A DNA stretch of 64,000 bases from Candidatus Hydrogenedentota bacterium (GTDB lineage: Bacteria > Hydrogenedentota > Hydrogenedentia > Hydrogenedentales > JAEUWI01), in assembly GCA_019637335.1 (NCBI GenBank), contig JAHBVV010000002.1, forward strand, positions 124,001-188,000, read 5' to 3'. Position numbers and translations under genes: made by a program. Numbering within the stretch: position 1 is the stretch's first letter; every line of letters starts with the position of its first letter. Positions 26,665 to 51,289 of this stretch are shown piece after piece. Below the pieces are notes generated by a model that was given only the letters and a program-made list of their open reading frames with translations, was not told the origin of the DNA and did no database searches.

Positions 26665-28086
26665 CTACTCCGTCACCCGAACCCGCGCGCCGCCCCCGCG
26701 CTTGTACAGCACCTGGTCCGCGCGCAACACCTCCGGCCGTTGCTCGAAAATCGCCTCGAAACCCGGGAAACGCTCCACCGGCTGGTTGCGCTCGTCATAC
26801 TTGTTAATCAGGTGCATCGTGAGCAGCAGGCGCGCAATCTGGTGCTGGCGCCGATCGCCGTAAAAAATGCCGAAACCGTGCCGGCACGCGTGCGCAAGCA
26901 CATCGCCGCACGCCTCCGGGCGCGCCGCGTCCGCCGCCGACCACGCAAACAGGTCCATGCCGTCGCTCTCTTCCACCTCTTCCTGGTGGTGCGCGTCATA
27001 ATCCGCCGCGAACCGTTCGTACAGCGAAACCACCCGGTCAAACCACACGAAAATCGCGCGGTAGCCCTCTTCCTGAAGGTCCACTATGATGCGCGCGTCG
27101 TCGATCGAGCCGATCGACTGCGTCGCCATGTAGTGCTCCCGATCCTCGTTGGAATCCGGCACCATCCGCACCCGCATCTTCTCCTGCGGGTCCCCGCAGT
27201 TGAAGCTCTCCAGCACCGTCGATACCTCGATCTTCGCCTGCGCGATCAGGCTCGCGTCCACCAGCATTCGCCCCGTAAGCGCGTCCAGCCCCACCGCCCG
27301 CTCCAGCGCCGGATCCGGCGCAAACAGATCGATACGCCAGTCAAACCACATGTCGTGGAAGATCGACAACAACTGCGCGCCGCAACCGTCCACCCGCCCG
27401 CGCCAGCAGGCGCGCGTCAATTCCGAAAAACGCTTCTCGAAGTGGCCGCGCGTCCGCCGGAACACCTTGTGCGCAAGCACGTGGCGAACCACCAGCATCC
27501 GGTCGATCAGCGTCTGCGCGCTGGCCTCCGGACACCCCGCGCACTGCATATACTGCTTGGCCCAGAACCCCCGCCACTCCCGCAGCTGCCGCGCCATCAC
27601 GCTCCGGGGCGGGCGGCGCAGCGCGTCCAGCGCGCCGCGGCTCACCGCCGCCTGGTTGAGCACCGGGGCCAGCTCCTCGCGGAACTCCTTCGGATTGTCC
27701 GCGTACAGCAGCAGCACATCCTCCCGCGGATCGTACAGGTACGACTGGTTCATGTCGCTGATGAGCACATACGGCAGGTTCAGGGCGCGCAGCCCGTTCA
27801 CCAGCAGCCGTGTCATCCGGCAGAAATCCAGGCCGCGCTCCACCAGCACCGCCGGCGGCTCAAGCTTACCCGGGCGCACAAAAACCGCCGCCACCGTCGC
27901 GCCCGAGGCCGCGCGCAACAGAAACGGCACGGAACCGGTGGACTCCACCGTGTCCCCCGGAGAAAAGGGCAGGGGAAGCTCCCACCCAAGCACGCGCAGA
28001 AAGTGGCGCGCGCAGTCCTGGAGATCCAGCTCGGGCGATTGCCACGCTTCACACAAAGCCGCGAGTTCGGCGCCGGTGTCCCTCAT
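26665..28086 (-). CDS. Protein of unknown function, restriction-enzyme-like N-terminal half possible
   Basis: A 473-residue soluble protein I do not recognise. Its first about 150 residues (e.g. GATVAAVFVRPGKLEPPAVLV, then RALNLPYVLISDMNQSYLYD, read in pieces) resemble the PD-(D/E)xK-like region found before type IIG or Eco57I-type methylases, but the methylase motifs are absent. The middle contains CAGCPEAS (about 185), a possible metal or redox site, and the C-terminal third is mixed alpha/beta. Its ATG overlaps the stop of the upstream winged-helix gene by four bases (ATGA), so they work as a pair. A defence or nucleic-acid role is only a guess from the regulator partner and the AT-rich promoter region. 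Confidence 0.6.
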   Translation of the reverse strand: MRDTGAELAALCEAWQSPELDLQDCARHFLRVLGWELPLPFSPGDTVESTGSVPFLLRAASGATVAAVFVRPGKLEPPAVLVERGLDFCRMTRLLVNGLRALNLPYVLISDMNQSYLYDPREDVLLLYADNPKEFREELAPVLNQAAVSRGALDALRRPPRSVMARQLREWRGFWAKQYMQCAGCPEASAQTLIDRMLVVRHVLAHKVFRRTRGHFEKRFSELTRACWRGRVDGCGAQLLSIFHDMWFDWRIDLFAPDPALERAVGLDALTGRMLVDASLIAQAKIEVSTVLESFNCGDPQEKMRVRMVPDSNEDREHYMATQSIGSIDDARIIVDLQEEGYRAIFVWFDRVVSLYERFAADYDAHHQEEVEESDGMDLFAWSAADAARPEACGDVLAHACRHGFGIFYGDRRQHQIARLLLTMHLINKYDERNQPVERFPGFEAIFEQRPEVLRADQVLYKRGGGARVRVTE

Positions 28087-28685
28087 GGTATTCCGTCTCC
28101 CTTCGTCACACTATAGCCACTTGCCTCTATACGCCGCCAGATCACATCGTCCCGGCGGCCCAACAGATCCACGCCATCCACTAGAAACGGCTGGAGCGCT
28201 GCATTCTTTTCACCCAACCACGCCACAAACGTGGCGCTCGCCACCACCTCCACCGTATACGGCGGCGCCTCCACCTGACCCGATTGGCCCGCCTTCAACA
28301 CCACAAGCACACGCGACGCACCGGCGTTCAGAAACGCCAGACGGATCGCCGGATTCACCGCAAGCCGGCTCCGAAGCCGGTCAAAATCGCTCCCCGCCTT
28401 TAAGATAATATCGCGCAATTCCGGGTACAACGGAAAATCCATGTCCACCTGGTGGTACGTGCGATTCCCTTCCACATGCCGAAACAAGAACCCAATGCTC
28501 ACCAGGCGCTCCAGTTCCCGTTGTACCGCGCGTATCGCCAGGCCCGTCGCCTGCTCCAGCTGACGCTGGTAATAGGCGCGCAACGGATCAATCAAAAAGA
28601 TACGGAGGATCACCACCCGCGCATTCGACGCGAAGAGAGTCGATAGAGTCTTTTCAGTATCTAATTGACTACTAAATACAGTCAT
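28083..28685 (-). CDS. Winged-helix protein with degenerate nucleotidyltransferase-like tail
   Basis: A 200-residue protein. Residues about 15-85 form an ArsR-like winged helix (ARVVILRIFLIDPLRAYY, then QLEQATGLAIRAVQRELERL and a wing GFLFRHVEGNRTYHQV). The C-terminal half looks like a minimal nucleotidyltransferase fold, but the usual GSxARG...D-x-D site is replaced (LAFLNAGASRVLVVLKAG), so it is probably inactive and may serve as a sensor domain. A longer frame begins at 28754, but that start lies inside the predicted -10 box, so ATG 28685 is preferred. It is coupled to the next gene by ATGA and likely regulates the operon. Confidence 0.65.
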   Translation of the reverse strand: MTVFSSQLDTEKTLSTLFASNARVVILRIFLIDPLRAYYQRQLEQATGLAIRAVQRELERLVSIGFLFRHVEGNRTYHQVDMDFPLYPELRDIILKAGSDFDRLRSRLAVNPAIRLAFLNAGASRVLVVLKAGQSGQVEAPPYTVEVVASATFVAWLGEKNAALQPFLVDGVDLLGRRDDVIWRRIEASGYSVTKGDGIP

Positions 28686-28749
28686 TTGCGCGAGATCAGC
28701 ATTAGCATACACCAAAAACGTCGTAAGAAACTCCCATAACGTGAAGCTA

Positions 28750-28778
28750 ATCATACATCAAGAACCACAAAAATACAA
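28750..28778 (-). promoter_or_regulatory. Promoter of the winged-helix operon
   Basis: On the minus strand TTGTAT (28778-28773), a 17-bp spacer and TATGAT (28755-28750) preceded by TG (extended -10). It sits in an AT-rich patch (about 28620-28850) unlike the GC-rich surroundings. Confidence 0.65.
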
Positions 28779-28863
28779 GATATTGTTTTGAATGATCATT
28801 TTAGTATCTTTTATGTATACATCTGGTAGTCAGAAGCAACCAAATCGGCTCCAACATTCGCCC

Positions 28864-29306
28864 AGGGGGACTGGCTCCCGCGAAAAAACCACCCCGGCCG
28901 CGAAAGCGCCACCAACCACCCCCAAAATCGCGGGTGCCTGTACCCGCCCCCGGCAGGGGGACTGGCTCCCGCGAAGTATCCACCCCAGCCGCGAAAGCGC
29001 CACCAACCACCCCAAAATCGCGGGTGCCTGTACCCGCCCCCAGCAGGGGGACTGGCTCCCGCGAAAAAAACACCCCAGCCGCGAAAGCGCGCCAACCACC
29101 CCCAAAATCGCGGGTGCCTGTACCCGCCCCAGCAGGGGGACTGGCTCCCGCGAAAAAACCACCCCAGCCGCGAAAGCGCTACCAACCACCCCCAGAAATC
29201 GCGGGTGCCTGTACCCGCCCCAGCAGGGGGACTGGCTCCCGCGAAAAATCCACCCCGGCCGCGAAAGCGCACCAACCACCCCAAAATCGCGGGTGCCTGT
29301 ACCCGC
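28864..29306. repeat. Tandem array of five 89-91-bp inverted-repeat elements
   Basis: Five units start at 28864, 28955, 29045, 29134 and 29225. Each begins with an 18-nt arm GGGGACTGGCTCCCGCGA and ends with TCGCGGGTGCCTGTACCC, whose reverse complement matches the first arm at 15 of 18 positions. In the middle every unit keeps CGCGAAAGCG, a 3-bp stem capped by a GAAA tetraloop. Linkers of 6-8 bp separate units. The array fills the divergent gap between the winged-helix operon and the protease gene. It is not a CRISPR because there are no variable spacers. Confidence 0.85.
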
Positions 29307-29352: not shown

Positions 29353-29382
29353 TTGACATTTTCGCGCCCCGCAACGCATCAT
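29353..29382 (+). promoter_or_regulatory. Promoter of the membrane protease gene
   Basis: A consensus TTGACA (29353-29358), 18 bp, then CATCAT (29377-29382; 4 of 6 matches). It lies immediately after the tandem array and 38 bp before the ATG. Confidence 0.6.
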
Positions 29383-29420: not shown

Positions 29421-31484
29421 ATGTCACAGGACCCAAGGTTAATTGCCGAAGCGCGCGCCTTGCTCGCGTGCATCCAGGTCACCCGCGATCCCGTCGAACA
29501 GAACCGGCTCTGGAACCGCTACTACCGCCTCTCCGACAGCGTCTTCCCCGAGGCCGCGGCCCTGCGCAAGCGCTACCGGAGCCTCCAGGGCGACGCCCGG
29601 CGGCGATTCAAGACCGAATACATGGAACTCGTCCGCCGCCTCTGGCGCGCCATGGACCCTGCCGCCGCCTACGAAGGCCCCCTGACGGAGGAGGAAGTCG
29701 CCGCGTCCCTCCAGAACCCGCGCGCAAAGCGCCCGCCCGACTACACGCCGCGTACAGCCCGCCGCGGTTCAGCGCCCGCGCTTCGATGGGCCGCGCTGCT
29801 CATGCTCCTCGCCGCGCTCGCGGGCGGCGGAATCTGGGCCTGGCAACAGGCGCTCGACCGCGCCGCGCAACCGTCTCCGCCCGTTGCCGCGCAAATACGC
29901 CTGCCCGCCGCGCTGCTCGAAGTGCCCGAAGGCGACCCCGCGCCGCCCATCGCAACGCCCGAGGCGTCCCCCGCCCTCCCGGACGAAATCCCCGAGCCCC
30001 TCGACGAAATCCCCGAAGCCCGCATCGAAGCCGAGGTCAACGCCGACATCCAGCCCGTGTTCACGCCCATGCCCGATGCGCTGCGCGGCCGCGGCGACCG
30101 CCTTTCCAGCCCCGGCGGCGATTTTGAAGATGTATACATCATCGAAGGAAAATCGCAGTATTACGTTCGCCTCCCCGAAACCGGCGGCGTCTCTACGGTC
30201 CGGCACGAGGGCGCATCGCTCCAACTCAGTGACGACGCGGCGGCGCGCGACGAACTCCTGGCCCTGTGGAAGGAAAACCGCGAGGCCATCGCCCGCGCGG
30301 AGGCCCTCCGCGAAGAAGAAAAGCTCGCGCGGATGGCCGCCGCGCACAAGGCCCTCGAGCATCAGCGCGCGGCCCGCAAGCGGGATCAGGAAGCGGCCGC
30401 CTGGCGCGCCCGCGCGGCCGACTGGGCCGCGCTCGCGCCCGGGCAGCGACACACCGCCCGCGTCCGCGCGCACAGCGACTGGCGGGCGATTCAGGGGGAC
30501 GCCGAGCGGCTGCGCGATCTTTACACCAACATCGCCCGCACCTACGAATACATTGGCGTGGCCGACGCCCGCATGGCCGAGTTAAACCAGGCCTACCGGC
30601 GGCTCGCGCGCGATTTCGGTCCGAATATGGACGTGGAGGGCGCGCTGCTCGTCTACGGTTGGGACCGCGAAGACATCCTCAAGCAGCTCGCCGAGTGGGA
30701 GCGCGAGTACTACCGCCTTGAGGCGCGGGTCAACGAGAAATATCCGGAATACGAAGCCCGCGTCAACGAAATCGCCCGGCTCGACGAGGCCCTTCCCGAA
30801 GACATTCGCGCCGCCGAAGAAGCCGGCTCCTGGGATGCCGGGCCCGCCGGGCCGGGAACCAGCGTCGGCACCGGGTTCATCGTCGCGAAAGGCCATATCC
30901 TCACCTGCGCCCATGTCGTCCGGGGCGGGGGGGCCATACGCGTAACCGACACCGGCGGCAACGTCCACGAAGCGCGCATTGTCGCCACCGACGCCGCCAA
31001 CGACTGGTGCCTGCTGGAAGTCTCCAGCATCCAGGGCGATCCCATCCCCATGGCCCCCGGCACGCCCAATGTCGGCGCAACCATCTACTGCCTCGGCTAT
31101 CCCCTCGGCGGCATCCGTGACAACAACGACCCCATCGTCGGCAGCGGCAACATCGCCGCAACCAGCCGCATCGACGGCGACCAGCGCTTTCTCCAGATCA
31201 CCGCGCCCATCAACCCGGGCAACTCCGGCGGCCCCGTACTCGACCAGCAGGGGCGCTGGGTCGGCGTCGTATCGCAAAAACTCAACGACCTCCACAGCCT
31301 TCAGACCTCGCAGTCCGTCGCGCAAGGCCTCAACTACGCCCTGAAATCCTCCCACATCGACCCGCTGATTCGAACTCTCAGCCCCGTCAACCTCGCGCGC
31401 GGCGGCGGAGGCCACGGAACCATATCCCTCGAACAAATCACAAAAACCGCCTCCCCCTCGATCGTAAAAATCGAAGTGCAATAG
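29421..31484 (+). CDS. Membrane-anchored trypsin-like serine protease
   Basis: A 687-residue protein with a cytoplasmic N-terminal helical domain (about 1-118), one membrane helix (120-146), a Pro/Glu-rich linker, a long helical, partly coiled-coil region (about 270-470) and a C-terminal trypsin/HtrA-like domain. The triad is complete: His498 in CAHVV, Asp528 in NDWCLLEV and Ser602 in PGNSGGPV. There is no PDZ domain. The protease is therefore periplasmic with a cytoplasmic sensor or partner region, unlike standard DegP. ATG 29421 was chosen from the promoter position and the change from repeat to coding sequence; the frame itself runs back into the array. Likely roles are regulated proteolysis or envelope quality control. 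Confidence 0.85.
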   Translation: MSQDPRLIAEARALLACIQVTRDPVEQNRLWNRYYRLSDSVFPEAAALRKRYRSLQGDARRRFKTEYMELVRRLWRAMDPAAAYEGPLTEEEVAASLQNPRAKRPPDYTPRTARRGSAPALRWAALLMLLAALAGGGIWAWQQALDRAAQPSPPVAAQIRLPAALLEVPEGDPAPPIATPEASPALPDEIPEPLDEIPEARIEAEVNADIQPVFTPMPDALRGRGDRLSSPGGDFEDVYIIEGKSQYYVRLPETGGVSTVRHEGASLQLSDDAAARDELLALWKENREAIARAEALREEEKLARMAAAHKALEHQRAARKRDQEAAAWRARAADWAALAPGQRHTARVRAHSDWRAIQGDAERLRDLYTNIARTYEYIGVADARMAELNQAYRRLARDFGPNMDVEGALLVYGWDREDILKQLAEWEREYYRLEARVNEKYPEYEARVNEIARLDEALPEDIRAAEEAGSWDAGPAGPGTSVGTGFIVAKGHILTCAHVVRGGGAIRVTDTGGNVHEARIVATDAANDWCLLEVSSIQGDPIPMAPGTPNVGATIYCLGYPLGGIRDNNDPIVGSGNIAATSRIDGDQRFLQITAPINPGNSGGPVLDQQGRWVGVVSQKLNDLHSLQTSQSVAQGLNYALKSSHIDPLIRTLSPVNLARGGGGHGTISLEQITKTASPSIVKIEVQ

Positions 31485-42603: not shown

Positions 42604-42744
42604 AATTCAGATCTCGCCTTGGAACGCACGAAACAAACAAACAACGAACATAGTGTCCCATGCTTCGGGCGCCAGGGGAAAGCGCGGCGCATCCCATCGC
42701 GATAATCTCGCAACCAAAATCGTCCCTCCGCCGAAGGCGCAACA

Positions 42745-42799
42745 GTAGGATAGGTCCTCGACGCGCCGGAGGCGGGCGTCCCGCCTGTCTTCCGCGCCC
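42745..42799 (+). repeat. REP-like hairpin R5 (GTAG foot) with 22-bp insertion
   Basis: GTAG (42745-42748) and GATAGG match R6, then about 22 bp of GC-rich sequence interrupt the 5' stem before CGTCCCGCCTGTC resumes. The hairpin is thereby broken. Confidence 0.6.
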
Positions 42800-42810
42800 A
42801 TGGCGCAAAA

Positions 42811-42833
42811 GTAGGATAGGCGTCCCGCCTGTC
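42811..42833 (+). repeat. REP-like hairpin R6 (GTAG foot)
   Basis: GTAG (42811-42814) abuts GATAGGCG/CGCCTGTC with loop TCC and the T-G wobble at stem position 3. Relative to R3 and R4 both stem strands changed together (GCC to GGC on one side, GGC to GCC on the other). Confidence 0.75.
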
Positions 42834-43068
42834 CAGCGCCGAAGGCGCCACTCATATCAGCCCGCCCCAACGGCCCGGGCAATTCGAGAATCAGCGCTTC
42901 AAAAAACTCCACCCCAGACAACCAGGACCTCAGCCTTTTCTGCCGGAGCCCCCGCCAAAAAAACATCCAACGATCGGCAGATTCCTGCCGTTTGGCGTCA
43001 TTCCGACAAATTGCTGCCGCCGATCAACGCCAACTCAGATGCCGGTATGCCTTGCCGCCCCGAAACTT

Positions 43069-43097
43069 TTGACAAGCTATCCGTTTTGCGAGAGAAT
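43069..43097 (+). promoter_or_regulatory. Promoter of the Ig-like/GH9 lipoprotein
   Basis: Consensus TTGACA (43069-43074), 17 bp, then GAGAAT (43092-43097; 4 of 6 matches). The leader to ATG 43254 would be about 150 nt. A second TTGACA (43147) lacks a good -10 box. Confidence 0.5.
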
Positions 43098-43253
43098 AAA
43101 CCAAGACGCGGCGCTTCTCCGCCTCAATCCGAGGGCGATTGCCGCGTTGACATCTGGTGGGTTCTCGCCAAGAAGAATCAACCGCGAGAACTGGGGAACC
43201 GTTCCTCAAGCGTGCGAAGGCGCCTGATCACCGGGCGTGTGGAGTATACCTTA

Positions 43254-46200
43254 ATGCGCAGACTATCGAGCGCGATCGGCCTGGCCTTGCTGGGGTTCCT
43301 GTTGGCGGGCTGCCCGAGCGGCGGCACGCCGGGCATCCGCCTTACCATCAATCCGCTCTCCATTGAACTGAATATCGGGCAGACGACCACCTTTGCCGTC
43401 TCGTCCACCGACAGCACCGATTTCTTCACCTGGCGCACCAGCAACCCCGCCGTCGTCACGGTGGACAACCGCGGCCGCGTTACCGCGGTTGATTCGGGTA
43501 CCGCGCGGATCACCGCCGTGAGCGGGAGAAGCAACGCCCAGATTTCCGCCAACGTGACCGTGCTCGCCCCGGCGGGGGAGGTCGCTCAGGTCGCCGTGTC
43601 TCCCGTCGCCGCCACCATCGCCGTCGGCGATACCTATACCCTGGAGGCGGCCTCGACCCGCGAGGACCCCGAATTTCTCTGGTTTTCCGAAAATGAAGCC
43701 GTGGCCACCGTAAGCGCCAACGGCGTCGTGACCGCAGTCGGGCCCGGCGTGGCCGTCGTCAACGCGCGCGGGGCCAGCCCCGCCGAGCGCGCCAGCGCCA
43801 CAATCACCGTCGTCGAGCCCGCCGTGCATTTCGCCACCGTGCACCCCCTCGGCGCCAACATCCTCGCAGGCGAGACCCTCGCCCTCTCCGCAACCTCCTC
43901 CGATCCGCTCGACACCTTCGTCTGGTCGTCAGAAGCCGAATCAACCGCCACCGTCGACGCGAACGGCGTCGTGACCGGTGCGGGCCCCGGCGGCGTCGTC
44001 ATCAATGCGCGCGGCACAAACAGCGGGGCCACGGCCAGCGCCGTCATCACCGTCACCCGGCCCGTAGCGCATCGCGTCAACGTGTCGCCCGCCACCGTTA
44101 CCATCGATCAGGGCGACACCATACGCTTTGACGCCACCACAACCCGCCCGGGCGACAGCTTCGCCTGGTCCAGCAGCGATACAAACGTGGCCGTGGTGGA
44201 CGGTGCGGGACGCGTCACCGGGCTGGCCATAGGCACAGCGAACATCGTCGCGCAGGGCGGCGATCCCGACGAGCGCGGGGCCGCCATGGTCCGTGTACGC
44301 GAAGGGCGTATTCGGATCGCCGCGGTGCGCCCGCTTGGGGCCCGCATTCCCGCCGGGGGGAGCGTACAGCTTTCCGCCTCGTCCGCCGACGCCTCCGAAA
44401 CCTTCGCCTGGTCCTCCGCGAACGAGGAAATAGCTACCGTCAACGCAACCGGGCTTGTTTCCGGCGTGGCCCCGGGGGAAATCCGCATCACCGCCGTCGG
44501 AGCCCGGACGGGAGCCACCGGCCAATCGCTGATTACCGTCGCGGAACCTATAGCACACGAACTCACCGTATCCCCATCCGCCACCGCGATTCAGGTGGGG
44601 GACACCTTCTCCTTCGCCGCCGCAAGCAGCCTCCCCGGCGATCGCATTGTGTGGTCCTCGTCCAACACGGGAGCCGCCACGGTCGACAGCGCCGGCGCCG
44701 TGACCGGCGTCGGCGCCGGCAGCGCAACCATCCGCGCGGAAGGGCTCGATTCTGGCGCAGCCGGCCAGGCCTTGCTCACCGTCACCGTTCCCGCCGAAGA
44801 GGATGTTACGGTCCGGCCTCGCGCCGCCACCATCGCCGTCGGCGAAAATGTGACCTTGGACGCCGCCTCGACCGACGCGTCCGATACCTTCACGTGGGCG
44901 TCCGCGAATCCGCTGATCGCATCCGTCAGCCCCACCGGCGTCGTTACCGGTGTGAACGAGGGGGCCGTGTTGATCTCCGCCCTCGGCTCCAGCAGCGCCA
45001 TCACCGGATCCGCAACCATCACCGTGACCGCGCCCCCGGCCTACACGGTCCGCGTTTTCCCCGACGCCGCCGCCCTCGCTATCGGAGATACGCTCCGCCT
45101 CGCCGCTTCCAGCACCCGAGCCGGAGATACCATCGCCTGGAACACGGCCGACTCCAACGTCGCCACCGTGGATTCCACCGGATTGGTCAGCGCCGCCGGC
45201 CCGGGAACGGTCCTGATTACCGCCACCGGGGCCCTATCCGGGGCCTCCGCCTCCGCCACGATTACCGTGGAAGAGCCCGTCGTGGAGGAGGCCTTCGTGC
45301 GTCCCGCCGAGGCCAGCATTCAAACCGGCGAAACCCTCGCGCTCACCGCGGAATCCTCCAACGCACTCGATGCCTTTACGTGGGCGTCGGACGCGGGCGG
45401 CGTGGCCTCGGTCGATGAATCCGGCCTCGTCACAGGGGCCGCCGCCGGCGTCGCCACGATCTCCGCCACGGGAACCATCACCGGCGCCGCGGGCGGCAGT
45501 ATCGTAACCGTTATCGCGCGCGTCGAACACGAGGTCTCTGTCTCCCCCTCGGCCGCCGCGTTGATCACCGGCGACACCCTCCAGTTCAACGCAAGCACCA
45601 CCCGCGAAGGCGACACCCTCACCTGGAGTTCCGACACGCCCTCCGTCGCGGCCGTGAGCCCGAACGGCCTCGTCACCGCCATCGGCCCCGGAAGCGCTTC
45701 CATCACCGCGCAGGGCGGCGCCGCCAACGAGCGCGCCGTCGCCCTCATCACCGTCGTGGATCCCGTCGCGCACCGCATCACACTCCAGCCCCTCGGAGCC
45801 AGCATTGAAGCGGGGGACACCGTGGCGCTCGCGGCGACCTCCACCGACCCGTCCGATACCTTCGCCTGGAGCTCCTCCAACGGCGCGATCGCCACCGTTA
45901 CCAGCACCGGCGTCGTCACCGGCGTCCTGCCGGGTTCCGCCGAAGTGCGCGTCCGTGGAGCCAGCAGCGGCGTCACCGCGGCCGCCACAATTACCGTTAC
46001 CGCGCCCGCGGTCCACACGGTGGCCGTGCGCCCGGCTTCGCCCTCGCTCGAAGTGGGGCAGACCGTATCCCTCGCCGCCACTTCCACCAATCCGGAGGAT
46101 GCCTTCTCCTGGACCAGCGCGAACGTCGCGGTGGCCACCGTCGGCGCCACCGGAACCGTCACCGCCGTCGCGCCGGGCCAGTCCGAGATCGTCGCCACGG

Positions 46201-49200
46201 GTACCCGCAGCGGATCTTCGGCGGGCGTAACCCTGACCGTTGTTGAGCCCGTTACCCATACCATCGGGCTGGATCCCGCCGTCTCCGCCATCTTCGTCGG
46301 CGCTACCGTCGCCCTCGCCGCCGTTTCCACGGACGAGAGCGACACCTTCACCTGGCAGTCGGATAATACCGCCGTCGCCACCGTGAACGCGTCTGGGCTG
46401 GTCACCGGCGTGGGAGAGGGAGACGCTACAATTACCGTGCTCGGCGCGCGAAGCCGCGCGCGGGCGCAAGCCACCGTCACCGTCACCCGCCATTCGGTCT
46501 CCGTTGCCCCCGGATCCCTGGCCCTCCTCGCGGGAACGACCGCCTCCCTCTCGGCCGCATCCAGTGACTCGGGCGAGGCCTTTCAGTGGGCCAGTTCCAA
46601 TACCGCAACCGCTACCGTCAGCGCCAGCGGCGTCGTAACCGGCGTCGCGGGCGGCCTCGCGGAAATTACCGCGACCGGCGTACGGAGCGGCGAATCCGCG
46701 AGCGCCGAGGTTTCCGTCCGCGACGGCGTCGTCGTCAACCCGCCCTCGGGCAGCCTCGTCGCCGGCGAAACGCTCCAGCTCGGAGCCCAGTCCACCGATT
46801 CCGCCGACACCTTCACCTGGTCTTCAAGCAGCAACGCCGTCGCCACGGTTAGCCCCTCCGGGCTTGTATCCGGCGTCGGCGGGGGAACCGTCGCCATCAC
46901 CGCCACCGGAACACGCAGCGGAGCCGCCGGCTCCGCCACAATCAGCGTGGTGCCCTACCTGCCGGTTACCCCGTCCACGGCTACCGTGCGCATTGGCCGC
47001 ATCGTGCCGCTGTTTGCCCCCGTTTCCTCGATCCATACCGAGCTGGCCTGGAGCAGCGCCGACCCCTCCATCGCGGCGGTGAACCAGAACGGCGTCGTGA
47101 CCGGATTGCGCGTCGGGAAAGTCCGCATCACCGCCACCGCGCGCCCCGGCGGAGCCACCGGCTACGCCGAAGTCACCGTCCTTCCCCGGTTCCCCAACGC
47201 CCTCCTCTTCGACGGTGAAAACGAGTTCACCTCAACCAGCCGCTCCCGGCGCAACACCGAAGAACAGTTCCGCGGTATGGGCTGTCTCGAAGGTATCCCC
47301 GACCAGTACGCCGGCTTTGGTTTCACCCTGCGGGACGAGTACTACCGTAAGGATATTTCCCATTTTGACGAGATCTGGCTCGTCGTCAAGGCCATCGGTA
47401 CCGGCGCAAACCCGAGAATGGAGTTCGCCAGCCACACGGGAGCCAGCGCCGCCGTCCGGCTATCCGAATTCATGCCGGACGGCCCGATCGACAACCAATA
47501 CCGCCTCGTACGCGTCCCCATGAACCGGCTCGTGACCAGCACCTACACCATGCGCTTCAATGAACGTTGCAATTTCGGCCCCCGGCCCGTCGACGCCAAT
47601 TTCCGCTTCTTCGTCGATGAAGTCTGGGCCGTAAGCCTCGACAGCGTAGACGCCGAGGGCGGGCCGCTTGTCGGGCCTATGCCCGCGATCGATTTCGGCC
47701 TCGTCAGCGTAACCGCGCCCGCCGCGCGAAGGGTCACCGTGCGCAACATCGGCGCATCCCCGCTCCGCGTGTCCGGCGTCGATGTCCGCGGCGGCGGATC
47801 CGCCGCCTTCAGCGTAACGCCGTCCGCCTTTGAGGTCCAGCCCGGCGCGGCCATGGATGTCACCGTCTCGTTCTCCCCGGCCTTCGCCGGCATTCAGGAT
47901 GCCACCCTCGCATTCAAGCACAACGACACCGCCTTCGGCGCCGAAACACTCCTCCCCGTGCGCGGCGACGGCATGGCGCCCCAACTCGCCCTCTCCCGAA
48001 GCAACGTCGATTTTGGCGCGGTTCCGCTTGCCGCCGCCGTGCGCCAGTTTATAACCTTCGCCAACACCGGAAACGCGCCCCTCGTGATTTCGTCGGTCGC
48101 CCTCCCGAGCGCCAACTTCAGCGCCGGAACCAGCAATTTCGCAATAAACCCCGGCGACTCCGTCGAATTCGAAATCACCGCCTCGCCGCTTCTGGCCGGT
48201 CTGCTCGACAGCGCGCTAACCTTCCAGACCAACGCGCCCGATTCCCCGACCGTTTCAATCCCGCTTCATCTCCAGGGCATTGCCGCCGGCCAGTTGGGCC
48301 GCCTCTCCCAGGAGGCCGTCGAGGTCACCTCCTCATCCGCCACCCTGGCCTGGGGAGCCTGGCCCGCGGCGGACAACGTCCGGGTGCTCATCGGCCCCGA
48401 ACCGCCCGCGGCCCCCGGCGGGCCGCTGCCCTTCGCCCACGAAGTCGCCAGCCTGCCCGGAACTGCTAGCGAATACACCCTGACCGGCCTCGCCGCCGGC
48501 GTGGACGCCTTCGTCCGCATCGAGGTCAGCGCACTCGGCGTCCCACTCGCCGCCGGCACGCTCGCAATCCAGACCCCCGGCGGCCCCGGCGCGGCCCTGG
48601 ACAACAAGCTCCGGGAAGTGCACCTGGTGGCCCCCAATATCCTCCAGCTCGTCCTGACCGATTCGCGTGTTCATTCGTTCCGCGAAGACGCCAACAACTG
48701 GGACCGAGGCATCGAAGAAGTTATCGGCTACACCGGCTCACAGTGGGAAACGGGGACCTGGACCGTGCGCCGCTCCAGCGGCGACGAGATCCCCATAAAC
48801 AATGTCTACCGCCACTCCGTACCGATCGGAGCCCCCTACTACGAGATCGGATTCGGAACATTGACCTTCGACCAGCTGCTCGACGTGGACCACATGATCT
48901 ACCTCGAATTGGCCGAAAACATCGGGAGCCCCGAAGTACTCGAGGTAACCGGCCCATCCTTCGACTACGAAATCCTGAACGCGTCCCTCGCGCGCGAGCC
49001 GCGTTCCGCGTCCCTCGCGGCCCTCGTGCCCTTCAGCGACCGCTATATGACCACCCCCGCGATTCAGGTTAATCAGGTCGGCTACAGCCCCGCAGCCACA
49101 AAGCGCTACGCCTATGTCTCCGGATGGATCGGAACCGGCGGACCGCTCAACCTGAGCGCCTTCCCCGCGCAGGCGGAGGTCATCGCCACCCCCGCCGACC

Positions 49201-50858
49201 CGCTTGCCCCCCGCCAGCCCGTGCTATCCGGCTTGCCCATCAGCCTGCGCGCCGCCGCCGACGCCGCCGCGGGAACGGAAGTGCGCGAAATCAGTCTCGC
49301 CGCCCTCCCCGAATCCGACGACACCGTCTACCGCGTGCGCATTCCCGGCGTCGGCGTCTCCTGGCCCACGCGCGTCAGCGAGGAGGCCGTCTTCGAAGCC
49401 TACTACCATGTCGCCCGCGGCCTCTTTCACAACCGCTGGGCTGGCGATCTCGCGCCCGAATTCACCGACTGGACACGCCCCGCCGACCACGGGACCGTCT
49501 TCACATCCGAAGAAACCAACCCCTGGGCCTTCTTCCCCAGCACAACCCCGCTCACCGGAGAGCGGCCCCTCCTCGGCGGGCACCATGACGCCGGCGATTT
49601 CGATATCCGCATCTTCCACGGCATCGTCGCCCAGATGCTCATGCGCGCCTACGAACTCAATGAATCCGCCTTCACGGATGGCCAGCTGATCATCCCCGAG
49701 AGCGGCAACGGCATTCCCGACTTCCTCGACGAGGCCCTCTGGAGCGTCGCCGGTTGGGAATACCTCCAGGACGAGGACGGCGGCGTCCGCATCGGGGCCG
49801 AATCGCACCGCCACCCCTGGGGCATTTATCCCGCCCACGAAGACCAACTCTTCTACTGGACCTACTCCAAGGATCCCGTCTTCACCGCCCGGTGCGCCGG
49901 CCTCTTCGCCCAGGCCGCCTGGCTCGTACAGCCCTACGATTTCGTCCGATCCCACATGCTGGAGCAGCGCGCCATCGCCGCCTACGACTACGCCATCGCC
50001 AACGGCGTCGACGAGACCGCCGGCGGGCCCATGGCCTACGCCGCTGGCGAGTTGTATCGCCTCACCGGCGAAGACGTCTACCGCGACATGTTCATCCGCG
50101 TCTGGGACGCCTTCAAGAAACCCTGGCCACCCTTCGCCCCGGATGTCTTCGCCCGCGACAACCCCTGGACCTCCTCGTTCACCAGCGCATCCCAGCCCAT
50201 CGTCTGGGACCACGTCTCCGCCTACGTGCTCAGCGGCGGAGCCGTCGCCTCCCACGTCTCCCTGTGGGAAGAACGCTCCAGAAATCAGATCGGCGGCCTG
50301 AGAAACGTCATGGAAGCCGCGCACGCCCACCGCAACGCGCGCCCCGCCGGATACGTGCTCGCCTACGGAAAGGGAACCGCCGTCGGCCAGTACCTCTTCG
50401 GCTCCTACGCCGGCATGCAGCTCGGGAATCCCAGCACGCAGCAATTCCAGGACGCCTTCGACCTGATAAGCCTCTCCGCCGACTTCATGCTCGGCTGCAA
50501 CCCCGCCGGCATCTCCTGGATCACCGGGCTCGGATCCCGCTCCCCCCAGTACCCGCTCCACCTCGACTCCCTCTACTACATCCGCCAGGGCCTCGGACCC
50601 GTACCCGGAATCCCCATATACGGTCCCACCGACACCCTCCGCCCCAGCAGCTACTACACCTACGGCGCGCGGCTCGCCTACCCAAGCTACACCAACAGCC
50701 CCCCATTCCGCCGCTGGAGCGACGTGCACACCTTCGTAATAAGCAACGAATTCACCGTATGGGAGAACCAGGCCCCCGCAGCCCAGCTCTTCGGCCTGCT
50801 CGTCGCCCCCGATATGATGCCACCCGAACACCTCTGGCCCACCGCACTACGAGAATAA
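43254..50858 (+). CDS. Giant Ig-like (Big_2) lipoprotein with C-terminal GH9 domain
   Basis: A 2,534-residue surface lipoprotein. ATG 43254 follows GGAG and gives a signal peptide with lipobox LAGC (Cys20). Residues about 31-1312 are 16 bacterial Ig-like (Big_2) repeats of about 80 residues (G-T/D-T...F-x-W-S-S...ATV...G-V-V-TGV). Then come a beta-rich, CBM-like region (about 1313-1463), two HYDIN/choice-of-anchor-D-type domains (1478-1569, 1576-1672), a fibronectin-III-like domain (1680-1780), an unassigned stretch (1780-1930), a CelD_N-like Ig domain (IQVNQVGYSP, about 1937) and a GH9 catalytic domain (2046-2533). The GH9 residues are Asp2112 and Asp2115 in HHDAGDFD and the general acid Glu2499 in SNEFTV. 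GH9 enzymes cut beta-1,4-glucans or related polymers; here the enzyme would be held far from the cell on a long stalk. Confidence 0.9.
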   Translation: MRRLSSAIGLALLGFLLAGCPSGGTPGIRLTINPLSIELNIGQTTTFAVSSTDSTDFFTWRTSNPAVVTVDNRGRVTAVDSGTARITAVSGRSNAQISANVTVLAPAGEVAQVAVSPVAATIAVGDTYTLEAASTREDPEFLWFSENEAVATVSANGVVTAVGPGVAVVNARGASPAERASATITVVEPAVHFATVHPLGANILAGETLALSATSSDPLDTFVWSSEAESTATVDANGVVTGAGPGGVVINARGTNSGATASAVITVTRPVAHRVNVSPATVTIDQGDTIRFDATTTRPGDSFAWSSSDTNVAVVDGAGRVTGLAIGTANIVAQGGDPDERGAAMVRVREGRIRIAAVRPLGARIPAGGSVQLSASSADASETFAWSSANEEIATVNATGLVSGVAPGEIRITAVGARTGATGQSLITVAEPIAHELTVSPSATAIQVGDTFSFAAASSLPGDRIVWSSSNTGAATVDSAGAVTGVGAGSATIRAEGLDSGAAGQALLTVTVPAEEDVTVRPRAATIAVGENVTLDAASTDASDTFTWASANPLIASVSPTGVVTGVNEGAVLISALGSSSAITGSATITVTAPPAYTVRVFPDAAALAIGDTLRLAASSTRAGDTIAWNTADSNVATVDSTGLVSAAGPGTVLITATGALSGASASATITVEEPVVEEAFVRPAEASIQTGETLALTAESSNALDAFTWASDAGGVASVDESGLVTGAAAGVATISATGTITGAAGGSIVTVIARVEHEVSVSPSAAALITGDTLQFNASTTREGDTLTWSSDTPSVAAVSPNGLVTAIGPGSASITAQGGAANERAVALITVVDPVAHRITLQPLGASIEAGDTVALAATSTDPSDTFAWSSSNGAIATVTSTGVVTGVLPGSAEVRVRGASSGVTAAATITVTAPAVHTVAVRPASPSLEVGQTVSLAATSTNPEDAFSWTSANVAVATVGATGTVTAVAPGQSEIVATGTRSGSSAGVTLTVVEPVTHTIGLDPAVSAIFVGATVALAAVSTDESDTFTWQSDNTAVATVNASGLVTGVGEGDATITVLGARSRARAQATVTVTRHSVSVAPGSLALLAGTTASLSAASSDSGEAFQWASSNTATATVSASGVVTGVAGGLAEITATGVRSGESASAEVSVRDGVVVNPPSGSLVAGETLQLGAQSTDSADTFTWSSSSNAVATVSPSGLVSGVGGGTVAITATGTRSGAAGSATISVVPYLPVTPSTATVRIGRIVPLFAPVSSIHTELAWSSADPSIAAVNQNGVVTGLRVGKVRITATARPGGATGYAEVTVLPRFPNALLFDGENEFTSTSRSRRNTEEQFRGMGCLEGIPDQYAGFGFTLRDEYYRKDISHFDEIWLVVKAIGTGANPRMEFASHTGASAAVRLSEFMPDGPIDNQYRLVRVPMNRLVTSTYTMRFNERCNFGPRPVDANFRFFVDEVWAVSLDSVDAEGGPLVGPMPAIDFGLVSVTAPAARRVTVRNIGASPLRVSGVDVRGGGSAAFSVTPSAFEVQPGAAMDVTVSFSPAFAGIQDATLAFKHNDTAFGAETLLPVRGDGMAPQLALSRSNVDFGAVPLAAAVRQFITFANTGNAPLVISSVALPSANFSAGTSNFAINPGDSVEFEITASPLLAGLLDSALTFQTNAPDSPTVSIPLHLQGIAAGQLGRLSQEAVEVTSSSATLAWGAWPAADNVRVLIGPEPPAAPGGPLPFAHEVASLPGTASEYTLTGLAAGVDAFVRIEVSALGVPLAAGTLAIQTPGGPGAALDNKLREVHLVAPNILQLVLTDSRVHSFREDANNWDRGIEEVIGYTGSQWETGTWTVRRSSGDEIPINNVYRHSVPIGAPYYEIGFGTLTFDQLLDVDHMIYLELAENIGSPEVLEVTGPSFDYEILNASLAREPRSASLAALVPFSDRYMTTPAIQVNQVGYSPAATKRYAYVSGWIGTGGPLNLSAFPAQAEVIATPADPLAPRQPVLSGLPISLRAAADAAAGTEVREISLAALPESDDTVYRVRIPGVGVSWPTRVSEEAVFEAYYHVARGLFHNRWAGDLAPEFTDWTRPADHGTVFTSEETNPWAFFPSTTPLTGERPLLGGHHDAGDFDIRIFHGIVAQMLMRAYELNESAFTDGQLIIPESGNGIPDFLDEALWSVAGWEYLQDEDGGVRIGAESHRHPWGIYPAHEDQLFYWTYSKDPVFTARCAGLFAQAAWLVQPYDFVRSHMLEQRAIAAYDYAIANGVDETAGGPMAYAAGELYRLTGEDVYRDMFIRVWDAFKKPWPPFAPDVFARDNPWTSSFTSASQPIVWDHVSAYVLSGGAVASHVSLWEERSRNQIGGLRNVMEAAHAHRNARPAGYVLAYGKGTAVGQYLFGSYAGMQLGNPSTQQFQDAFDLISLSADFMLGCNPAGISWITGLGSRSPQYPLHLDSLYYIRQGLGPVPGIPIYGPTDTLRPSSYYTYGARLAYPSYTNSPPFRRWSDVHTFVISNEFTVWENQAPAAQLFGLLVAPDMMPPEHLWPTALRE

Positions 50859-50861
50859 CAA

Positions 50862-50998
50862 GGGGACTGGCTCCCGCGACATAAACCACCTCAGCCGCGA
50901 AAGCGTCGCAACCACCCATGGGGACTGGCTCCCGCGACATAAACCACCTCAGCCGCGAAAGCGTCGCAATCACCCCCGAATCGCGGGTGCCTGTACCC
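50862..50998. repeat. Two further inverted-repeat elements of the 28.9-kb type
   Basis: The first (50862-50919) has the 5' arm GGGGACTGGCTCCCGCGA and the GAAA-loop core but lacks a 3' arm. The second (50920-50998) is complete, with TCGCGGGTGCCTGTACCC at 50981-50998. They begin 3 bp after the stop of the giant lipoprotein. The core reads CCGCGAAAGCG in both. Confidence 0.8.
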
Positions 50999-51289
50999 GC
51001 AAGAGGTGTGCCACGCACCCCAGGGACTGCGGCGCCCCGTCACCTCGAATACGAGCAGTGTGCGCGGGACCGAAAGCAAGCTCAACAAAGCGGCTACACC
51101 GACAACCGGCGCGGCTGTCCCGTCACGCGCACAAATCGCGGGCGCCTGTAGCCGCCCAAAAGGCGAGCCACGGGTGCCATCCTCCTGCGGCGGATCTCCG
51201 ACGTTCAAGCTCCGCGGCTCCGCCGCGAAGGCTTGAGCGTGCGGATCGTCCATTGAGCCCCCACCCCCGATCCCAACCCCGAAAAGAAC

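What the first reader, a model, noticed from the sequence alone, without database searches (positions are those of the whole stretch)
28864..29306. Five tandem 90-bp inverted-repeat elements with GAAA-tetraloop cores
Each unit has 18-nt arms that are imperfect inverted repeats of each other (15/18) around an invariant CGCGAAAGCG. It resembles a paired-REP (BIME-like) or MITE-like element amplified in tandem. It occupies a divergent promoter region: a -35/-10 pair directly follows the array on the right and another precedes it on the left. It could be a protein-binding array, a structured RNA or a transposition passenger.
Basis: seen in the sequence. Interest (0 to 1): 0.75.

Follow-up and report, generated by a model that had tools for sequence, protein, structure and literature searches.

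The report
Tandem array of transposase-linked DNA hairpins
The five repeats are copies of a small hairpin-forming DNA element, found at least 62 times in this bacterium and most likely spread by a single-strand DNA transposase; such elements are known elsewhere, but here the stem sequence changes freely from copy to copy while one mismatch and one bulge stay fixed.

Summary
In detail: five head-to-tail units of 89-91 bp at 28864-29306, arms complementary at 15/18. The emphasis on the GAAA core is misplaced: it varies elsewhere in this genome and is unrelated in other genera. The conserved part is a pair of arms. Each unit is an inverted doublet, GGGACTGSCWYC-N38-66-GRWGSCTGTACCC, with 62 exact copies in this genome, 113 in six other genomes of the phylum (inferred Hydrogenedentota) and 0 in three congeners. 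Doublets join two unlike arms (175 mixed, against 0 and 1 like-with-like). The stem covaries strongly between elements, around a T.T mismatch and a bulged A. One RAYT-type HUH/Y1 transposase gene of this genome sits among nine such doublets, two further RAYT loci are bracketed by mixed doublets, and 50 of 109 relatives carry the arm motif within 250 bp, mostly pointing outward. It is best read as a RAYT-linked REPIN/TIR-type miniature element, amplified locally in tandem. It lacks the GTAG tag of classical REPs and resembles the little-studied TIRtrons. Mobilisation is inferred, not shown: in three other doublet-rich genomes no Y1 gene examined has matching ends. Any effect on the nearby promoter is unproven.

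The parts
28864..29306 (+). tandem array of five inverted doublets, head to tail, 89-91 bp period
28866..28945 (+). unit 1: L arm 28866-28883, core 28899-28908, R arm 28928-28945
28957..29035 (+). unit 2: L arm 28957-28974, core 28990-28999, R arm 29018-29035
29047..29125 (+). unit 3: L arm 29047-29064, core 29080-29089, R arm 29108-29125
29136..29216 (+). unit 4: L arm 29136-29153, core 29169-29178, R arm 29199-29216
29227..29304 (+). unit 5: L arm 29227-29244, core 29260-29269, R arm 29287-29304
50862..50998 (+). second site of the same family in the window: one truncated unit (L arm only, 50863) followed by one full doublet (50921-50998); starts about 4 nt after the stop codon of the ORF ending at 50858
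29353..29382 (+). promoter-like site TTGACA-18-CATCAT downstream of the array (neighbour, not part of the element)
   Evidence: consensus match only
28083..28754 (-). divergent left gene, 223 aa, no Pfam or NCBIfam match (neighbour)
29421..31484 (+). divergent right gene, trypsin-like peptidase domain protein (neighbour)

Best explanation
The array is five tandem copies of a non-autonomous, RAYT-linked miniature element of the REPIN/TIR-repeat type. Each copy is an inverted doublet of two unlike arms (L: GGGACTG..., R: ...CTGTACCC) that can fold, as single-stranded DNA, into one long imperfect hairpin of about 20 pairs with a T.T mismatch and a bulged A. A RAYT-type HUH/Y1 transposase (gene at G000:C3:67017-67649, or a relative) is proposed to recognise this hairpin, cut beside it and paste it at new, mostly intergenic sites, as TnpA-REP is thought to do with REPs. 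The 90-bp head-to-tail array then grew locally by slippage or unequal recombination. SHOWN: dispersal, doublet architecture, covariation of the stem, unlike arms, physical association with RAYT genes. INFERRED: recognition and movement by the RAYT, the single-strand intermediate, the way the tandem grew. UNKNOWN: any effect on the neighbouring genes.
For: 62 exact doublets in this genome, 113 in six others of the phylum, none in three congeners, none for the reversed control. Unlike arms 175, L-L 0, R-R 1. Stem covariation in 66 distinct elements: position 8 paired 1.00 vs 0.52 shuffled, inner positions 13-19 own arms 6.18 of 7 pairs vs 3.44 with arms of other elements. A RAYT gene with intact HVH and YVELNP motifs lies among nine doublets, 74 bp and 22 bp from the nearest; L083 and L093/L172 are two further RAYT loci bracketed by mixed doublets. 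In 109 RAYT relatives the arm motif is at 1.99 per kb within 250 bp, 92 outward and 12 inward, vs 0.02-0.13 per kb farther away, reversed control 0. The upstream gene's orthologue in a congener lacks the array. Central regions are more alike within arrays (0.89) than between (0.69).
Against: In G004-G006, which hold 110 doublets, none of the Y1 loci examined carries matching ends; their assemblies are fragmented. In this genome only one of 12 Y1 loci carries them, and by my rough estimate (about 30-40 clusters, 12 genes, 7.16 Mb) adjacency of one cluster to one gene has a chance of several percent. No excision, insertion junction or enzyme activity was observed. The array's closest outside copy is about as similar as the array mates, so local growth is only modestly supported. 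NCBIfam's REP_Tyr_transpos match is below its cut-off.
Confidence: 0.8

Rival explanations
1. The element is a MITE of a classical (DDE) insertion sequence: a deletion derivative moved through terminal inverted repeats by a DDE transposase, and the RAYT gene lies among the copies by accident.
For: The whole unit has long imperfect terminal inverted repeats and no coding capacity. In G004-G006 no Y1 gene with matching ends was found.
Against: The arm motif is strongly enriched beside RAYT genes of many phyla, and RAYTs of three genomes have mixed doublets on both sides. No target duplication was looked for systematically, so this is not excluded on that ground.
Confidence: 0.08
2. The repeats work as cis-acting regulatory DNA or RNA: a binding array or structured RNA at the divergent promoter, kept by selection at this site.
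For: The array sits between two divergent genes, 47 bp upstream of a promoter-like site; RNA folding of the + strand is somewhat better than shuffles (z -1.1 to -2.6).
Against: Copies are scattered over the genome, also directly behind a stop codon in the window; the array is absent upstream of the orthologous gene of a congener; no Rfam match; the - strand does not fold better than shuffles. A secondary effect on the promoter remains possible.
Confidence: 0.07
3. The array is a plain minisatellite or an assembly artefact without a mobile element behind it.
For: Tandem units, and several contigs of this assembly end in such arrays.
Against: Single and tandem copies at dozens of unlinked places, units that differ from one another, and the same architecture with other stem sequences in other genera.
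Confidence: 0.03

Closest known systems
TIRtrons / TIR repeats of TIRYT genes (Di Nocera et al. 2013, PMC3733652; tentatively TnpAY1 subclass 2.1 in PMC6006769)
   Same: Y1 transposase gene between terminal inverted repeats rather than GTAG-REPs; TIR copies also occur as dimers and clusters; relatives of the RAYT here have ends of the form GGGGACAG, which fits the published motif GGGGWSAS.
   Different: The window's family breaks the motif at the two positions that make its arms unlike (GGGGACTG and GGGTACAG); it exists mostly as doublets in tens of copies; no HTH domain was detected by Pfam in the 211-aa protein, while subclass 2.1 proteins are described as having one.
REPINs (REP doublets forming hairpins; Bertels and Rainey 2011, PMC3116915)
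   Same: Inverted doublet as the unit, imperfect hairpin, dispersed in the genome, ordered tandem clusters, cluster beside the RAYT gene.
   Different: Pseudomonas REPINs pair two copies of the same 16-mer; here the two arms are of two different kinds and carry no GTAG.
BIMEs of E. coli (y-z1 / y-z2 REP mosaics; PMC8266576)
   Same: Mosaics of unlike REPs in opposite orientation, frequent tandem copies, a conserved stem mismatch that TnpA-REP needs for activity.
   Different: E. coli REPs are each a GTAG-tagged palindrome of 29-37 nt with its own mismatch; here the mismatch lies in the stem formed between the two arms, and there is no GTAG.
MITEs of DDE insertion sequences (e.g. NEMIS, RUP, ERIC; as listed in PMC3733652)
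   Same: Short, non-coding, terminal inverted repeats of 15-30 bp.
   Different: The associated gene here is a Y1/HUH enzyme, not a DDE transposase.

Membership tests
REPIN (RAYT-linked REP doublet) | two REP-like arms in inverted orientation forming one hairpin | tested here: met
   175 inverted doublets; covarying stem
REPIN (RAYT-linked REP doublet) | dispersed in many copies | tested here: met
   62 exact doublets in 7.16 Mb
REPIN (RAYT-linked REP doublet) | copies beside a cognate RAYT gene | tested here: met
   L012 in this genome, L083 and L093/L172 elsewhere; not found in G004-G006
REPIN (RAYT-linked REP doublet) | two copies of the same REP sequence as arms | tested here: not met
   unlike arms 175, like arms 1
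GTAG-tagged REP | GTAG (or CTAC) tetranucleotide at the foot of the hairpin | tested here: not met
   present within 12 nt of the foot in 1 of 45 own and 3 of 35 other elements
GTAG-tagged REP | each arm is itself a palindrome | tested here: inconclusive
   short self-stems can be written for the R arm of this genome (CGGGT...ACCCG), but not for most L arms of G004-G006 (sequences, by eye); single motifs at RAYT ends pair little above shuffles
TIRtron / TIRYT | Y1 gene between terminal inverted repeats with motif GGGGWSAS | tested here: inconclusive
   outward inverted motifs flank many relatives and read GGGGACAG there (e.g. L082); the window's own arms deviate at one position each
TIRtron / TIRYT | membership of TnpAY1 subclass 2.1 (HTH-like C-terminal extension) | tested here: inconclusive
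   only Y1_Tnp is found in the L012 protein; no tree with reference subclasses was built
RAYT / TnpA-REP enzyme (for the gene in L012) | HUH motif, WQ and Y---NP signature of class 2 | tested here: met
   NHVH, WQ and YVELNP in L012; both histidines, W, Q, Y and N invariant in 19 proteins; Y1_Tnp above cut-off
RAYT / TnpA-REP enzyme (for the gene in L012) | cleavage and transfer of the linked hairpin | not testable with these tools
   needs biochemistry
DDE-type MITE | target-site duplication and a DDE transposase with the same terminal repeats | not tested
   no precise empty site was available; no DDE transposase search was made

The most novel reading that the evidence does not exclude
A distinct class of RAYT-moved elements in which the transposase reads structure: two unlike arms give a fixed T.T mismatch and a bulged A that mark strand and end, while the rest of the stem may take almost any sequence so long as it pairs.
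Probability: 0.35. Interest if true: 0.6.

Novelty: new variant of a known kind. Interest (0 to 1): 0.45.

Why it matters
How RAYTs outside the GTAG-REP groups find their substrate is open; PMC6006769 reports that neither automatic nor manual searches found REP-like sequences beside subclass 2.1 genes and that the link to TIRs needs confirmation. Here some 175 natural variants of one hairpin show a visible rule (pairing kept, sequence free, two flaws kept), which makes recognition directly testable. The elements also explain repeats at which this assembly breaks.

Tried and rejected
Self-palindrome of the single arm motif at RAYT ends: pairing only weakly and inconsistently above shuffles, so not claimed. 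GAAA core as the working part: rejected, variable in this genome and unrelated in G004-G006. Structured RNA: only a sub-threshold mir-204 match, surely chance. Relatives of the RAYT among solved structures by sequence: none. Exact empty site: the congener locus keeps the left gene but not the right one, so junctions could not be placed. Literature on Hydrogenedentes and repeats: nothing on these elements.

Full report
CHECK OF THE OBSERVATION. The arms are complementary at 15/18, and CGCGAAAGCG is in all five units. The doublet pattern is absent from 100 shuffles of the window and present six times in it. The array lies between two divergent genes; a promoter-like TTGACA-18-CATCAT follows at 29353-29382, but no consensus promoter was found on the left. 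The right neighbour is a trypsin-like peptidase; the left one is a 223-aa protein without a family.

DISPERSED, NOT LOCAL. In the same 7.16-Mb assembly the array sequence has 70 BLAST matches, GGGACTGGCTCC occurs 72 times against 5 for the reversed control, and 62 exact doublets exist. A second site is in the window itself, starting about 4 nt after the stop codon of the ORF ending at 50858. Tandem arrays of other periods occur elsewhere (about 77, 88 and 170 bp), and several contigs begin or end in such arrays. Three congeners have no doublet; in one of them the orthologue of the left gene (74% identical DNA) has no array upstream, although the right-hand gene there is a different one.

HOST. 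The RAYT of G034, a genome of the window's own family, has the same protein sequence as that of L082, whose record is titled Candidatus Hydrogenedentota, so the host is inferred to belong to that phylum.

ARCHITECTURE. In 68 genomes of the phylum the mixed doublet GGGACTGSCWYC-N38-66-GRWGSCTGTACCC is found 175 times: 62 own, 40 in G004, 23 in G005, 47 in G006, one each in G010, G015 and G022; the reversed control has none. Doublets of two L arms: 0. Doublets of two R arms: 1. I compared 66 distinct elements end to end (nine further elements of the form GGGACTGGCATCC were left out because their register differs). Position 8 is C-G or G-C and pairs in 66/66 against 0.52 for shuffles; positions 13-20 pair at 0.62-0.97 against 0.27-0.79, with several pair types at most of them; over positions 13-19 an element's own arms form 6.18 of 7 pairs against 3.44 for arms of other elements. 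Position 6 is T.T throughout and the R arm has one extra A. Both flaws are part of the search pattern, so their invariance in this sample is partly by construction; the independent test is that the two like-with-like patterns are practically absent. With a looser pattern on the loci held, some doublets without the extra A appear (9 of the kind A/T, 3 T/T and 1 T-/Ta in other genomes of the phylum; 6 A/T and 7 T/T at RAYT loci of the wider survey), so the extra A is a property of this family and the unlike-arm rule is not universal among relatives. The inner stem is not constrained by the pattern, so its covariation is not a pattern effect; related elements within a genome do, however, count more than once.

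THE TRANSPOSASE. The genome has 12 Y1_Tnp matches. One, in L012, encodes 211 aa with Y1_Tnp at 50.3 bits over a cut-off of 23 and REP_Tyr_transpos at 65.4 bits, below its cut-off of 80. Its HVH, WQ and YVELNP motifs align with 18 relatives in which both histidines, W, Q, the tyrosine and the asparagine are invariant. It lies among nine doublets of the window's kind plus a second kind (CCAGCTGG...), the nearest 74 bp upstream and 22 bp downstream of the coding match. Two other RAYT loci, L083 and L093 (the latter looks the same as L172), are also bracketed by mixed doublets. Over 109 RAYT relatives, GG[AGT][GTC]NCTGTA?CCC occurs at 1.99 per kb within 250 bp of the coding match, 92 of 104 pointing outward, against 0.02-0.13 per kb farther out; the reversed control gives none within 250 bp.

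MECHANISM. The most economical reading is that a RAYT recognises the folded single strand of the doublet and moves it, as proposed for REPINs (PMC3116915). For E. coli TnpA-REP, cleavage in vitro needs a conserved mismatch in the REP stem, and only one of the two strands is processed (PMC8266576). The T.T and the bulged A would play that part here and would make the two strands distinguishable. This step is inference. Tandem growth is then local: unit centres are 0.89 identical within arrays and 0.69 between arrays, though the nearest outside copy is about as close as the array mates. Against the RAYT link, none of the Y1 loci examined in G004-G006 carries matching ends; those assemblies are in 160-1060 pieces.

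COMPARISON. There is no GTAG tag, so it is not a classical REP. The doublet is REPIN-like but with unlike arms, which recalls the y-z mosaics of E. coli BIMEs. Relatives of the RAYT have ends fitting the GGGGWSAS motif of TIRtrons (PMC3733652), which PMC6006769 tentatively equates with TnpAY1 subclass 2.1. No HTH domain was detected in the protein here, so I say that it works like a TIRtron/REPIN element and leave the subclass open.

VERDICT. A real, dispersed, RAYT-linked miniature element in tandem: a new variant of a known kind.

Noticed in passing
window 28660-28690 and 28812-28835: TGACTACTAAATACAGTCA and TGTATACATCTGGTAGTCA lie around the start of the left gene; similar words (TGACTATAGATTGTAGTCA, TATACAGATAGTAGTCA) are at the corresponding places of the congener locus L193. 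A candidate operator, perhaps autoregulatory.
   Followed up: no
window 51018-51130; also L022, L023, L034: A second repeat, CCCCAGGGACTGCGGCGCCCCATCACC...GGCGCGGCTGTCCCGTC, stands directly beside many doublets and may be a composite of several hairpin families.
   Followed up: partly
contigs C7, C10, C14, C26, C27, C39 of the window's genome (L025, L038, L034, L029, L049, L036): Contig ends fall in or near doublet arrays, so true copy numbers are probably higher than counted.
   Followed up: partly
window 42660-50858: A 2732-aa ORF with many similar Ig-like-looking repeats and an enzyme-looking C-terminal part, judged by eye only.
   Followed up: no
L012 and L067 (G000:C3:66673-68647, G000:C2:283294-285458): A second doublet kind with arms CCAGCTGG / CCAGCCGG alternates with the first kind at about 170-bp period, at the RAYT and at one site without a RAYT.
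   Followed up: partly
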